A stretch of DNA of 59,540 bases from Methanospirillaceae archaeon. Its GTDB lineage: Archaea; Halobacteriota; Methanomicrobia; Methanomicrobiales; Methanospirillaceae. Location of the stretch: contig JAFGOM010000061.1 in the NCBI GenBank assembly GCA_016926505.1, positions 1 through 59,540 of the forward strand. Reading direction: 5' to 3'. Position numbers and translations under genes: made by a program. The notes beneath the pieces were generated by a model that searched no databases, was not told the DNA's origin, and saw only the letters and a program-made list of their open reading frames with translations. How positions within the stretch are numbered: the first letter of the stretch is position 1; every line of letters begins with the position of its first letter. Positions 11,343 to 22,002 of this stretch are shown here, in pieces.

Positions 11343-12689
11343 TTACAATTCTGTTCTTTTTATCATAAGCACAGTAATATCATCAGACTGCGGTGACTTC
11401 CCGATAAATTGACTGATATCAGAGAGAATCGAAGATACAACCTCTTCTGTAGCCTGTTCCCGGACTTCTGCCAGAACCCGGGAGATCCGCGGCATTCCAT
11501 ACATATCCCCCTCTTTGTTTGTGCTTTCTGAAACACCATCAGTATAACAGAAAAGAAGATCTCCGACATTGAGCATGACGGTTTCATCATGATACACCTC
11601 ATCCTTCTCAAAACCGATTATCTTTCCGGTTTTGGTAAGCAACTGAATACCTCCGTCTTTTCGCACCAATACAGGGGGAGGATGACCTGCATTACAGTAC
11701 CTGACATTCCCGGTTTCTGCATCCAGAATGCCATAAAAAAGACTGAAAAACATCCCGCTCTCAACGTATTTATATATCAGGTTATTGGCAAGCGAAACTG
11801 CCTTTCCAGGATGACGCACCCATTCTGCAGCTGCACGTATGGTCATACATGATAATCCCATGAAGATAGCTGCAGGAATACTTTTTCCAGACACATCGGC
11901 TATTAAAAAACCACATTCATTCTTCTCGAACTGAATAAAATCATAGAAATCTCCTCCCACCTCCCTGGCCGGCTTGGAGTATGCAGTCACTTGAAATCCC
12001 TGTATATCAGGAAAATGGCTTGGAAGAATACTTTCCTGTATCTGAAACGCTATCTCAAGTTCGGTATTCCTTCGTTTAAGCTCCTCCCCGGTCTTTTTTT
12101 CAAGGAGATAGTTATGAAAAACAACAGAGAAACAGAACATCCCGATACAATTCAAGGCCATCCCGCTCGTCCCCATGGTCCAGAGGATCTCATCAAGACC
12201 AGGAGTATCAGGAGTCAGAAGAGAGACCAACCAGACATGAACGAGTTCAAGAATAAGTACCAGGATTACCGCGGGTAGTGTCCCTATGAATCGTTTCTTA
12301 TGATACCACCAGACAAAACCGGCGATGAGAGCTGATAAAAGGGTAGCCAGACAGCACGGGATCATGGTTATACCACCCAGAGAAACCCGGTACAGGACCC
12401 CGATAATACCTGCTCCAAGCCCTACCAGTGGTCCGCACGTAAGACCTGCAATAATCGGTCCAAGATCCCTGACATTTGCCTGAGCCCCAAAAAGGGAGAA
12501 CCCACTCATCGTTCCATATATCGAGAGGGCACCGAAAAAAAGGATGAGAAGGAGTTTATCCTTCAGGCTTCCCTGCTGGAAAACCACCCGGTAGTAGACA
12601 GATGTGCGTGAGATAAAGTATGATACAAGAATAATCACACTGGTGAGTTGAAAAAGTTCAACTCCGGCAGGGACAATCTGATCATGCAT
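11343..12689 (-). CDS. Membrane SpoIIE/RsbU-type protein phosphatase with LytS-like sensor region
   Basis: 448 aa. Residues ~1-200 form five to six membrane helices with the 5TMR-LYT pattern (GPIIAGLTCGPLVGLGAGIIGVLYR), as in LytS-type receptors. A short coiled linker (EELKRRNTELEIAFQIQESILP) leads into a PP2C-like SpoIIE domain: PAREVGGDFYDF and FLIADVSGKSIPAAIFMG hold the first metal aspartates, CYTDGVSES and SDDITVLMIK the last. All key acids are present, so the enzyme should dephosphorylate a serine/threonine. Six bp upstream on the same transcript lies a STAS protein, the standard substrate of such phosphatases, and before it a permease with an RsbW-like tail. The membrane part probably senses a small ligand or envelope state. 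Confidence 0.92.
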   Translation of the reverse strand: MHDQIVPAGVELFQLTSVIILVSYFISRTSVYYRVVFQQGSLKDKLLLILFFGALSIYGTMSGFSLFGAQANVRDLGPIIAGLTCGPLVGLGAGIIGVLYRVSLGGITMIPCCLATLLSALIAGFVWWYHKKRFIGTLPAVILVLILELVHVWLVSLLTPDTPGLDEILWTMGTSGMALNCIGMFCFSVVFHNYLLEKKTGEELKRRNTELEIAFQIQESILPSHFPDIQGFQVTAYSKPAREVGGDFYDFIQFEKNECGFLIADVSGKSIPAAIFMGLSCMTIRAAAEWVRHPGKAVSLANNLIYKYVESGMFFSLFYGILDAETGNVRYCNAGHPPPVLVRKDGGIQLLTKTGKIIGFEKDEVYHDETVMLNVGDLLFCYTDGVSESTNKEGDMYGMPRISRVLAEVREQATEEVVSSILSDISQFIGKSPQSDDITVLMIKRTEL

Positions 12690-12695
12690 TATTGT

Positions 12696-13055
12696 TTATG
12701 TCGTAAATGCAGCCCGTGCATCTGCAATATCAGGATAGATCTCAAAACTATTCAGCAGGTCTGCCAGGTCTAATATCTCGTGCACAAACGGTTGAAGCGA
12801 TGAGATTGCAAACCGGATATTGGCATTTTTCAGATGACGACGGATCTTTATCAGCACCCTGATCCCTGAACTGCTCATGTAGGTAAGACCTGATAAATCA
12901 ATGATCACACCTTTTAAAGGGAGGAGATCAATTGAAACAATCTCCTCTTCAACCGGATCTGCATTCGATGCATCCAGCATCCCTTGTAATGATACCACTA
13001 AAATGGCATCCTTAACCCCTGACTGTATCTCCATATCTTTATTCCTCTCATTCAT
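12696..13055 (-). CDS. STAS-domain protein (anti-sigma antagonist type)
   Basis: 119 aa, one STAS domain. The phosphorylation helix region is intact: VIIDLSGLTYMSSSGIRVLIKI, where the serine run before GIR holds the residue phosphorylated by RsbW-like kinases. In bacteria such proteins release a sigma factor from its anti-sigma kinase; archaea lack sigma-70 factors, so the partner must be something else. Lies 15 bp after the permease and 6 bp before the phosphatase. The context suggests that this STAS protein binds the permease tail, or a kinase elsewhere such as the one at 21532, and is reset by the phosphatase. Confidence 0.93.
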   Translation of the reverse strand: MNERNKDMEIQSGVKDAILVVSLQGMLDASNADPVEEEIVSIDLLPLKGVIIDLSGLTYMSSSGIRVLIKIRRHLKNANIRFAISSLQPFVHEILDLADLLNSFEIYPDIADARAAFTT

Positions 13056-13070
13056 TGATTTCTGCTATGA

Positions 13071-14777
13071 TTAATGATCATAATGAATTAATACGTGTGC
13101 AGTTTCTTCTTTTTGCGTAGTCGAGACCTTATCTGCCAGACGGCGAATCATGAATCCTGCCAGTTCCGGCAGGGTTGATTCATCTTCTGCTATCTCTTCT
13201 TCACTGGGACGTTTCTCTGCTAATGGAATCTCGGATCCCAGGTAACTGATATCTGCATCAAGATTAAACTCGTCAAAAATAACTTTGACATCAACCTCTT
13301 TCAGATCCCGGTTTAACATGCATATCATCTCAACACACTGGTGTATTGCTGATGTGGCATGGGTGATTACATCAGGACGTGCTCCCCACACACCACCCTG
13401 TACCTTCATGAAATAAAAGATCGACTCCGCAATATTGGACTGTCTCTCAACGACAAGAGTTGCTGTTTCTTTGATACCGATACGGAGAACGAGGTGAAGG
13501 ATGATGACCGTCAGGGTAGCCATGGATAATGTTGAAGAGAATATCGGTTCCAGTGCCGATGGAATACCGATATAAAGTCCTGGCATCAATACCGACAACC
13601 CCATAAAAAAGGATAATCCCACGACAAACGTTCTCCGTACATCCATCATTCGCGAAGAGATGATATTAAGCCCGGTTATAAGCATAAAACTCATGGAATA
13701 CAGAATGGCAGCAGCCATCACCGGATCCGGCATGATAACAAAGATCATGGCAAGTTTGGGAAAACATGCAAGAACGATCAGTATGGCCCCGATGGAATAG
13801 CCGATATATCGGGAGGTTGCACCGGTACCGATAGAAAGACCGATATTTCCTGATGATGTTGACTGCCCGTATGTCCCTAATAGACCGCTGATAATATCCC
13901 CAAGTCCGTCAACAAATATCCCGTCCCTGATATTTTTCATATCAGGCCGTTTCCAGCTGAGATCATTGATCCGTTGACAGGTTGTGATATCACCTACACT
14001 CTTGAGCGTTACACAGACCATTGCTATGAGAAAAGGAGCAGCAAGTGTGATATCAAACGAGAGACCAAAATGCGAGGCATCAGGAAATCCGAGAATTGGG
14101 GCGTTGAGGATCTGCTCGATATGAGAATAATCCAATATACCGGTAAGAAACGAGATGATATATCCGAATATCATCCCGATAAGAACACAGTAGAGTTTCG
14201 CCTTTCCTTTTGAATAGACATTCAGACCAATGATCAGTACAAGGGTTAGTATTGAGAGTCCCAGTGAAAGGGGATCGAGAACACCGGTCTGCTCATGTAT
14301 CCCAAGGAATTTCGGGAACACTATCGGCATGACTGCAATAGCAACGAAACAGACAACTGTTCCGGTAACCTCTGAAGGGAACATGAACCTGAGGCGGGTG
14401 ATAAGGCGGGATAAAAATGTCTCGAATATCCCGGCAATGACAGTCATTCCGTATAAGAGATGCAGACCCCCGGCCTGGGCAGCAAGAACCGATGATGAGA
14501 TATATGAGGGTCCGCAGAGTGAGGGGCACAGGTACCCGCAACCGATTCCTTTCTTTCCATATGCCTGAAGACAGGTGCAGATGCCTGCTGCCAGCATCCC
14601 CATGCTGACCATGAACATGGCCTCGGTATCGCTCCCACCGATGGTTTTTACCACCATCACGGGAAGGATGAGACTGATGATGATGAGAAAGATATGCTGA
14701 ACCCCAAGCAGGAAAAGCGGTACCGGTGCAGGTTTTTCATCAACGCTATAAATGAGTTCCGGGGGTCGTTGTACCAT
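13071..14777 (-). CDS. NCS2-type nucleobase permease with extra C-terminal RsbW-like domain
   Basis: 568 aa, about 120 longer than plain uracil/xanthine permeases. Residues ~20-435 carry some 12-14 membrane segments with NCS2 features: two alternating half-repeats, and the helix-10 region with IISGLLGTYGQSTSSGNIGLS, which forms the substrate site in UraA. Residues ~445-568 form a soluble domain resembling the HATPase fold of anti-sigma kinases (HATSAIHQCVEMI for the N-box helix, VDVKVIFDEFNLDADI for the central strands, FMIRRLADKVSTTQKEETAHVLIHY for the last helix and strand). The N-box Glu/Asn and the DxGxG loop are not clear, so ATP binding is doubtful. Related SLC26 transporters end in STAS; here the STAS protein is a separate gene 15 bp downstream. 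Confidence 0.85.
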   Translation of the reverse strand: MVQRPPELIYSVDEKPAPVPLFLLGVQHIFLIIISLILPVMVVKTIGGSDTEAMFMVSMGMLAAGICTCLQAYGKKGIGCGYLCPSLCGPSYISSSVLAAQAGGLHLLYGMTVIAGIFETFLSRLITRLRFMFPSEVTGTVVCFVAIAVMPIVFPKFLGIHEQTGVLDPLSLGLSILTLVLIIGLNVYSKGKAKLYCVLIGMIFGYIISFLTGILDYSHIEQILNAPILGFPDASHFGLSFDITLAAPFLIAMVCVTLKSVGDITTCQRINDLSWKRPDMKNIRDGIFVDGLGDIISGLLGTYGQSTSSGNIGLSIGTGATSRYIGYSIGAILIVLACFPKLAMIFVIMPDPVMAAAILYSMSFMLITGLNIISSRMMDVRRTFVVGLSFFMGLSVLMPGLYIGIPSALEPIFSSTLSMATLTVIILHLVLRIGIKETATLVVERQSNIAESIFYFMKVQGGVWGARPDVITHATSAIHQCVEMICMLNRDLKEVDVKVIFDEFNLDADISYLGSEIPLAEKRPSEEEIAEDESTLPELAGFMIRRLADKVSTTQKEETAHVLIHYDH

Positions 14778-20522: not shown

Positions 20523-21531
20523 TTATCTCCGCAAATCAGCCATCCTGCCTGTTATATCGTCCTTTAAATATTTTCCAAATCCGGGATAGATCTGAATAAG
20601 GCTGAGATCAAACGGGACGCACACCCGTTGCAGGCGGACATGGTCTTTATCTTCTACCTGACAGGGGCGGATCCCGGTAAAGACAAAACCCGGCCGGATT
20701 CCGCGAGCAAAACGAGCAGTCCGGTAGCGGGCTGGGAAAGTGGCAGATCGAGACTCACAACTTCAGCACCTGCAAATTCCACCATGTCTTCTGCAACCCG
20801 CAGGATCTCAGGCCACTGGCGTTCATCAGCGTTGATAACGGTAATTATCCCTTTTTTCAGAGATCTGTCAAAAAAACCCGGTAATCCCCGGAAGAGTCTG
20901 CAGGAACAGGTCTGCCTATCGTGCACGGCTGGTGAAGATTCTCATAGATCCGGGTAATGATTGCACGGTAAAGATCAGGAACATATACGCAAATCGGAGA
21001 GGGAGGGGAGAGGTATTTGAAACAATGAAGGTATGACTCCCGCTGCTCTGGGATATCGTCACTGACAAGGGCCTTGAACATACGGGGAGGACATGCTGCA
21101 AGATCAAGACTGCACGGAACAAAGTCCCGCCGATAGAACGCCTTCTGGCTTTTATTATGACTGGTAACCGGGTTTGCCGAGAGACCAGAGAGACCCAGCT
21201 CGGCAGCCTTTGTAAAGATGGCTATCTTCAAGGAAGGTCATGATCCCTCGGCCCCGGTGTGCAGGAGAGACAGCAAGAAGAGCGACCTCAGCCATGGGAA
21301 CGGGCTTGGGCATGAGCAGGCCTGCGTGTCCTGCCAATTCTTTATCCTCACCGACGGCAACTAAATTGAAAAGGCGACCGCTGCTTATGAGTTCTAATAA
21401 CCTATCCGGCCGTTAGAAATCCTCATTTTTGTACGTGCATCCATACACCAGCCAGAAAAGCCGGGTAACCTGTTGTGCCTCCTCGTCACGCATCGCCCGA
21501 ATCTCATAGTGCTGGGGGGGAGCGGGAGTGA
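20523..21531 (-). pseudogene. GNAT-family acetyltransferase gene, broken by a stop and frameshifts
   Basis: Read on the minus strand the pieces give: HYEIRAMRDEEAQQVTRLFW ... YKNEDF, a TAA at 21413-21415 where a sense codon is expected before RPDRLLELISSGRL, then the acetyl-CoA loop AEVALLAVSPAHRGRGIM, a frame change near 21230, a long piece with NPVTSHNKSQKAFYRRDF and PPRMFKALVSDDIPEQ, another change near 20860 to KKGIITVINADERQWPE and VEFAGAEVVSLDLPLSQP, and last DHVRLQRVCVPFDLSL to a stop at 20523. Together they cover a whole ~330-residue protein of a methanogen family that I recall next to RsbW-like ATP-binding proteins. The nonsense codon argues against simple read error. Confidence 0.8.
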
Positions 21532-22002
21532 TCACATGTTCCTCCTGAACCGGTACTGGTTTTGTTGGTCTGGTAACTTCTTGACTTGAAAGAGGACTTT
21601 GCCCTGCTTTCCCAGATTCTCAAACCAGACTTCATCGACGCTATATCGGATAATCTGAAATCCCAGACCACGGGTATCGATATCCACGTCAGAATCGATA
21701 GCATACGAATACTCATATGGTGATTCGTGAAAAGGGATCTCCTCGTCGTGAAATGAGAGTACCATCTCGGTCGATGTAATTGTACCTTTTATGTGAATAT
21801 CTCCGGGTTTACAGTCAGGATATGCATGTTCAAGGATATTTACAAATGCTTCTTCAGAAGCAAGCTCAAGGTTGGAGAGAACCGTATCAGTAAAGCCGGC
21901 AATATGGCATAGTTCACGGATTTTTTTTGGAGAGGATACTAAAAATGGGTAAATTTCATTCTTCTGGTTATATCCCCGGATTACATCTGTCAATTCCCAC
22001 AT
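21532..22002 (-). CDS. RsbW-like ATP-binding protein (anti-sigma type serine kinase)
   Basis: 156 aa, one HATPase_c domain of the anti-sigma kinase kind. The N-box helix is intact (NLELASEEAFVNILEHAY, Glu and Asn present), the D loop reads FHDEEIPFH, and the G2 region is DTRGLGFQIIRYSVDEVWF, so ATP binding is likely. Such kinases phosphorylate STAS proteins, and the STAS gene at 12696 is the only candidate partner in the window. Its stop coincides with the start of the broken GNAT gene, which was probably co-translated. Divergent from clpB. Confidence 0.88.
   Translation of the reverse strand: MWELTDVIRGYNQKNEIYPFLVSSPKKIRELCHIAGFTDTVLSNLELASEEAFVNILEHAYPDCKPGDIHIKGTITSTEMVLSFHDEEIPFHESPYEYSYAIDSDVDIDTRGLGFQIIRYSVDEVWFENLGKQGKVLFQVKKLPDQQNQYRFRRNM

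What the first reader, a model, noticed from the sequence alone, without database searches (positions are those of the whole stretch)
11343..14777. A transporter wired to a partner-switching pair in an archaeon
One tight operon (gaps of 15 and 6 bp) holds an NCS2 nucleobase permease with an added C-terminal domain like an anti-sigma kinase, a free STAS protein, and a membrane SpoIIE-type phosphatase with a LytS-like sensor. In SLC26 carriers, relatives of NCS2, a STAS domain is fused to the carrier; here the carrier bears the RsbW-like side and STAS is separate. The likely circuit is that phosphorylated or free STAS binds the permease tail and changes transport, and the phosphatase resets it. 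There is no sigma factor in archaea for STAS to release, so a transport target is a sensible alternative. The kinase step could be the RsbW-like protein at 21532, since the permease tail lacks clear ATP-binding residues.
Basis: partly seen in the sequence, partly recalled or inferred. Interest (0 to 1): 0.8.

Follow-up and report, generated by a model that had tools for sequence, protein, structure and literature searches.

The report
Transporter with a dead-kinase switch tail
In a methanogenic archaeon, a membrane transporter carries at its end a domain shaped like a bacterial anti-sigma kinase that has lost its ATP site, encoded next to the small switch protein and the phosphatase that normally work with such kinases; the same linkage recurs in other archaea and bacteria, which suggests that this switch controls a transporter directly instead of gene transcription.

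Summary
The three genes form a tight operon: NCS2/SLC23-type permease, STAS protein, 5TMR-sensor SpoIIE phosphatase. The permease tail (residues ~436-568) has no Pfam match. Its predicted structure (pLDDT 95) matches SpoIIAB/RsbW/UsfX anti-sigma kinases as the 18 best PDB hits, and its profile aligns end to end with RsbW (E 2e-9). The ATP site is lost: Mg-binding Asn 0/52, adenine Asp replaced by Tyr 51/52. Relatives in several archaeal families and in bacteria carry the tail, always on this permease clade. 17 of 51 loci have STAS, SpoIIE or RsbW within 3.5 kb, in several gene orders, against 0 of 20 untailed NCS2 loci.

The proposed kinase at 21532 is a fragment of a frameshifted HATPase-GNAT gene; an intact RsbW lies elsewhere in this genome. 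The permease is unlikely to be an ordinary nucleobase carrier: the substrate-binding Glu is Lys/Arg/Gln/His in 49/49 tailed relatives.

Best reading: dephosphorylated STAS docks on the tail and gates transport (inferred). It would give a first concrete target for archaeal 'anti-sigma' modules, an open question since 2009.

The parts
13479..14777 (-). Permease transmembrane part (residues 1-433), NCS2/SLC23 fold; K259 (codon 14001-14003) replaces the TM8 substrate Glu
   Evidence: PF00860 9e-55; Foldseek SVCT1/UapA/UraA best; residue counts
13074..13472 (-). Permease tail (residues 436-568), RsbW/SpoIIAB-fold domain without an ATP site
   Evidence: AF2 pLDDT 95, Foldseek PDB, hhalign E 2e-9, residue counts
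12696..13055 (-). STAS protein (anti-sigma antagonist type); S62 in S61-S62-S63-G64 is the expected phospho-serine
   Evidence: PF01740 6e-22, TIGR00377 above cut-off; S61, S62 and G64 invariant in 14 aligned STAS; motif position
12123..12596 (-). 5TMR-LYT membrane sensor of the phosphatase, with N72-x-R74, R101, C112 at the BtsS spacing
   Evidence: PF07694 1.5e-31; spacing; PMC10653868
11343..12122 (-). Linker and SpoIIE/PPM serine phosphatase domain with GGDFYD, DVSG, YTDG and SDDIT motifs
   Evidence: PF07228 1.5e-47; motifs at 245, 265, 382, 435

Best explanation
A partner-switching module whose output is a transporter. The permease tail is an RsbW/SpoIIAB-fold receptor that has lost its ATP site, so it can hold the STAS protein as RsbW does but cannot phosphorylate and release it. 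The 5TMR sensor sees a small ligand and controls the SpoIIE phosphatase, which removes phosphate from S62 of the STAS protein. Dephospho-STAS docks on the tail and changes transport. A true RsbW-type kinase, in the same operon in several relatives and in trans here (best candidate on contig C109), rephosphorylates STAS and frees the permease. Shown: gene order, tail fold (predicted), loss of the ATP-site residues, phospho-serine and phosphatase motifs, recurring linkage. Inferred: STAS-tail binding, its dependence on phosphorylation, the effect on transport and its sign, the ligand, the kinase used here.
For: Tail fold and profile match only the STAS-binding anti-sigma kinases; ATP site uniformly lost while the domain stays conserved; every long tail found is on this permease clade; module genes adjacent in 17/51 loci in different gene orders, with RsbW in L005, L067, L068, L069, L129, against 0/20 untailed controls; at least nine changes of linkage on the permease tree; SpoIIE present in 29/29 tail-bearing genomes against 136/203 others; STAS phospho-serine and phosphatase metal motifs intact; no sigma factor in archaea for the module to act on (PMC2686161); dephospho-STAS is the binding form for RsbW in known systems (PMC8256260).
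Against: No interface was predicted or measured. Two thirds of tailed permeases have no module gene within 3.5 kb; they would need STAS in trans (such modules do exist elsewhere in some of these genomes) or use the tail for something else. The STAS-SpoIIE-RsbW module is common in the class next to other genes, so some of it has other targets. No kinase gene is in this operon.
Confidence: 0.5

Rival explanations
1. Transceptor: information flows out of the permease. The tail holds STAS (or pairs with the RsbW kinase) depending on whether the carrier is loaded, so the permease is the sensor and the module carries the signal to another target, for example transcription.
For: RsbW is in the operon in several relatives; the module also exists without the permease in many genomes, next to other genes; RsbW-type proteins are dimers in known systems, so tail-RsbW pairing is possible.
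Against: The phosphatase already has its own membrane sensor, so a second sensor is not needed; no second target gene recurs next to the tailed permease in the operons read.
Confidence: 0.22
2. The tail is only a structural part (dimer contact or stability) left from an old fusion, and the operon reflects shared expression without direct contact.
For: 34/51 loci have no module gene nearby; a genus with the same permease clade has shortened tails and no module nearby.
Against: The fold that was retained is the STAS-binding one, and the neighbours that recur in different orders and lineages are exactly its known partners; untailed NCS2 loci never show them (0/20).
Confidence: 0.15
3. One reading: a nucleobase permease regulated by STAS that is phosphorylated by the RsbW-like protein at 21532.
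For: 21532 matches HATPase_c_2 (E 1e-12) and keeps the N-box Glu and Asn and the G1 Asp; it lies about 7 kb away on the same strand.
Against: It is the first piece of a frameshifted HATPase-GNAT gene; G129, with the same operon, has no homologue at E 1e-6 and G207 is not among the matches. The carrier's substrate Glu is replaced in 49/49 tailed relatives.
Confidence: 0.04

Closest known systems
Partner-switching systems SpoIIAA/SpoIIAB/SpoIIE and RsbV/RsbW/RsbU of Bacillus, and sigma-independent ones such as SypA/SypE, BtrU/V/W, HmpU/V/W (PMC8256260)
   Same: STAS with a conserved phospho-serine, PPM serine phosphatase with a sensor, RsbW-fold binding partner
   Different: The RsbW-fold partner is fused to a transporter and lacks the ATP site; no sigma factor; the true kinase is outside this operon
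SpoIIAA/AB/E-like modules of Methanomicrobiales (PMC2686161)
   Same: Same order of archaea, same three protein types; targets declared undeterminable from the genome in 2009
   Different: That report names no target; here a carrier with an RsbW-like tail is in the operon
SLC26/SulP carriers (SLC26Dg, prestin, BicA)
   Same: Related 7+7 transmembrane fold with a cytoplasmic domain from the partner-switching world
   Different: They carry the STAS side; this carrier bears the RsbW side, STAS is a separate protein, and the fold is nearer SLC23
NCS2/SLC23 carriers UraA, UapA, SVCT1
   Same: Closest solved folds and Pfam family; Q-H of TM1 and N of TM10 kept
   Different: TM8 Glu is Lys, TM10 Gln/Glu is Ser/Gly; extra C-terminal domain
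BtsS/BtsR pyruvate sensor and the BtsT pyruvate transporter of E. coli (PMC10653868)
   Same: Sensor of the same family with the R72, R99 and C110 equivalents at identical spacing; the controlled function is a transporter
   Different: BtsS is a histidine kinase acting through transcription; here a phosphatase is attached and control would be on the transporter protein; Ser113 is Ala

Membership tests
RsbW/SpoIIAB GHKL serine kinase (for the tail) | RsbW/SpoIIAB fold | tested here: met
   18 best PDB hits, probability 1.00; hhalign E 2e-9
RsbW/SpoIIAB GHKL serine kinase (for the tail) | ATP site: N-box Asn, G1 Asp, G2 glycines | tested here: not met
   Asn 0/52, Asp 0/52, first G2 Gly 4/52; also no Pfam HATPase hit
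RsbW/SpoIIAB GHKL serine kinase (for the tail) | Binds STAS | not testable with these tools
   No complex prediction or binding assay available
NCS2/SLC23 carrier | Family profile and 7+7 fold | tested here: met
   PF00860 9e-55; Foldseek SVCT1/UapA/UraA E 5e-16 to 1e-14
NCS2 nucleobase permease (by function) | TM8 substrate Glu and TM10 Gln/Glu | tested here: not met
   K259 and G310; Glu 0/49 among tailed relatives, 30/35 in untailed NCS2 of the class; roles from PMC3405029
STAS anti-sigma antagonist (SpoIIAA/RsbV type) | STAS profile and phospho-serine motif | tested here: met
   PF01740 6e-22; TIGR00377 72.1 bits over 53.45; S62 in SSSG, serines invariant
SpoIIE/RsbU PPM serine phosphatase | Family profile and metal-binding Asp motifs | tested here: met
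   PF07228 1.5e-47; GGDFYD, DVSG, YTDG, SDDIT
Complete partner-switching module | Active RsbW-type kinase in the module | tested here: not met
   None in the window operon; 21532 is a broken gene. Met in relatives L005, L067-L069, L129; a candidate in trans on C109
Complete partner-switching module | STAS phosphorylation by the kinase and dephosphorylation by the phosphatase | not testable with these tools
   Needs biochemistry
SLC26/SulP carrier | STAS domain fused to the carrier | tested here: not met
   The tail does not match a STAS profile (0.2%); STAS is a separate gene

The most novel reading that the evidence does not exclude
A sigma-independent partner-switching system whose direct output is a membrane transporter: an SLC23-like carrier clade with a changed substrate site acquired an ATP-dead RsbW domain as a dock for dephospho-STAS, and this circuit works in archaea and in some bacteria.
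Probability: 0.5. Interest if true: 0.85.

Novelty: new variant of a known kind. Interest (0 to 1): 0.73.

Why it matters
SpoIIAA/AB/E-like genes in Methanomicrobiales have had no known target since 2009, because archaea have no sigma factor (PMC2686161). A transporter that carries the RsbW-side domain and sits in the same operons is a concrete, testable target. It would show partner switching used for post-translational control of transport, the mirror image of SLC26 carriers, in which the STAS side is fused. It also defines an SLC23-like clade whose substrate Glu is replaced, mostly by Lys, and whose cargo is unknown and perhaps anionic.

Tried and rejected
RsbW at 21532 as the kinase: rejected, frameshifted HATPase-GNAT remnant. 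Tail as a STAS-like domain: rejected. Tail as an active kinase: rejected from residues. A sequence-only search of the PDB with the tail profile found nothing meaningful; the fold search did. Linkage limited to archaea: rejected (L117, L118, L010). Chance neighbourhood: rejected by 20 untailed controls. SpoIIE modules dedicated to this permease only: rejected, the module is common in the class in other places. Covariation between tail and STAS was not attempted: too few operon pairs. Literature searches found no description of a permease-RsbW fusion in the open library; subscription papers were not searched.

Full report
Observation. On the minus strand at 11343-14777 there are three genes with gaps of 15 and 6 bp: a 568 aa permease, a 119 aa STAS protein and a 448 aa phosphatase. 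Pfam gives Xan_ur_permease (9e-55), STAS (6e-22), SpoIIE (1.5e-47) and 5TMR-LYT (1.5e-31); the permease tail alone has no hit. NCBIfam places the STAS protein above the cut-off for anti-sigma antagonists, and the permease below the cut-offs for the named xanthine and uracil permeases.

The tail. An alignment of 52 tails gave an AlphaFold2 model with mean pLDDT 95. The 18 PDB matches with E up to 0.001 are all chains of SpoIIAB, RsbW or mycobacterial anti-sigma F (UsfX) entries, probability 1.00, TM-score 0.54-0.70 by query length. Profile-profile comparison with 14 RsbW proteins, most of them from related loci, gives 96% and E 2e-9 over 127 collinear columns; a STAS profile as control gives 0.2%. 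Genome searches with the tail profile also return true RsbW genes at E 1e-5 to 1e-6. At the ATP site, 14/14 RsbW keep the N-box Glu and Asn, the G1 Asp and the G2 glycines. The tails keep the Glu in 44/52 (Gln here), but have no Asn in 52, Tyr for Asp in 51/52, and the first G2 Gly in 4/52. The tail is an RsbW-fold domain that should not bind ATP in the usual way.

Distribution. Tailed permeases occur in 29 of 232 genomes of the class, after removal of three hits to RsbW genes or very short frames, and more rarely in other families of the phylum, in Nitrospirota, in the class of a Chromatiaceae genome and in the phylum of a KSB1 genome. Every long tail found was on this permease clade. One genus (g25) has the same permease clade with shortened tails.

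Gene order. Permease-STAS-SpoIIE: window, L003, L059. Permease-STAS-SpoIIE-RsbW: L067, L068, L069. STAS-SpoIIE-RsbW-permease: L005, L129; convergent with the permease in L126. STAS-SpoIIE-permease: L127. SpoIIE-permease: L072, L128. STAS-permease-SpoIIE with gaps of 3 and 13 bp in a gammaproteobacterium: L117. Permease-STAS with divergent RsbW: L118. STAS-RsbW 2.3 kb upstream in a Nitrospirae genome: L010. In all, 17 of 51 loci have a module gene within 3.5 kb; 20 untailed NCS2 loci have none within about 6 kb (Fisher p 0.002, relatedness not corrected). On the permease tree the linked state changes at least nine times (quick tree, several long branches), so the association was made or lost repeatedly. 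SpoIIE is present in 29/29 tail-bearing genomes and 136/203 others. The STAS-SpoIIE-RsbW module is common elsewhere in the class, so this last figure shows opportunity rather than specificity.

The kinase. The ORF at 21532 is not a free RsbW. Its closest relatives are about 500 aa proteins, HATPase_c_2 plus GNAT acetyltransferase, and the window holds the rest in five pieces in three frames down to 20541: a broken gene, or less likely several sequencing errors. Genome G129, which has the same three-gene operon, shows no homologue at E 1e-6, and G207 is not among the matches. The best RsbW of this genome is on contig C109, in the order STAS-SpoIIE-RsbW-STAS followed by a sodium:solute symporter; it is the better candidate, not a proven one.

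The carrier. The fold search puts it with SVCT1, UapA and UraA, ahead of SLC26. In UapA, Q85, E356, D388 and N409 are irreplaceable, and E356 and Q408 hold the purine (PMC3405029). Here Q27, D290 and N311 are kept, but K259 and G310 stand for E356 and Q408. Over 49 tailed relatives the Glu position is K 41, Q 4, R 3, H 1; in untailed NCS2 of the class it is E in 30 of 35. An ordinary nucleobase substrate is therefore unlikely; an anionic one is possible (inference).

The sensor. The 5TMR domain has N72-x-R74, R101 and C112 at the spacing of N70, R72, R99 and C110 of BtsS, whose two arginines and cysteine take part in pyruvate binding (PMC10653868); Ser113 is Ala here. 36 of 42 such phosphatases keep this spacing, 35 of them with the Cys. 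Fusion of this sensor fold to PPM phosphatases, prevalent in archaea, is already described (PMC11109136). The ligand is unknown.

Mechanism. In known systems dephosphorylated STAS binds RsbW and phosphorylation releases it (PMC8256260). A binding domain of that family without an ATP site, fused to a carrier and encoded with STAS and its phosphatase, is best read as a dock: phosphatase on, STAS docks, transport changes; kinase on, STAS leaves. Fold and gene linkage are shown; binding, effect and direction are inferred. A transceptor reading, in which the carrier signals outward, is the main rival.

Novelty. Partner switching with outputs other than sigma factors is known, and SpoIIAA/AB/E-like genes in Methanomicrobiales were reported in 2009 with targets that could not be determined (PMC2686161). 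No description of an RsbW-fold tail on an SLC23-like carrier was found in the open library. I rate it a new variant of a known kind.

Noticed in passing
window 20541-22002 (-): Broken HATPase-GNAT acetyltransferase fusion gene in five pieces and three frames; intact relatives of about 500 aa in L228-L231.
   Followed up: yes
L020 5959-10603 (own genome, contig C109): Second module in the same genome: STAS-SpoIIE(5TMR)-RsbW-STAS followed on the same strand by a sodium:solute symporter (PF00474), possibly another transporter under such control.
   Followed up: partly
L214, L215, L218, L219, L221, L224, L225, L226: In many genomes of the class the STAS-SpoIIE-RsbW module sits beside a 420-435 aa protein with a STAS-like part and, in most, a large protein that looks like a metallo-beta-lactamase fold plus an ABC ATPase: a different, unknown output.
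   Followed up: no
L191-L198, L203, L204: One genus (g25) has the same Lys-bearing permease clade with shortened, degenerate tails and no module nearby.
   Followed up: partly
L074, L075, L076: Tandem pairs of permeases of this clade, the first with a partial tail and Asn at the TM8 position, the second with a full tail and Gln there.
   Followed up: no
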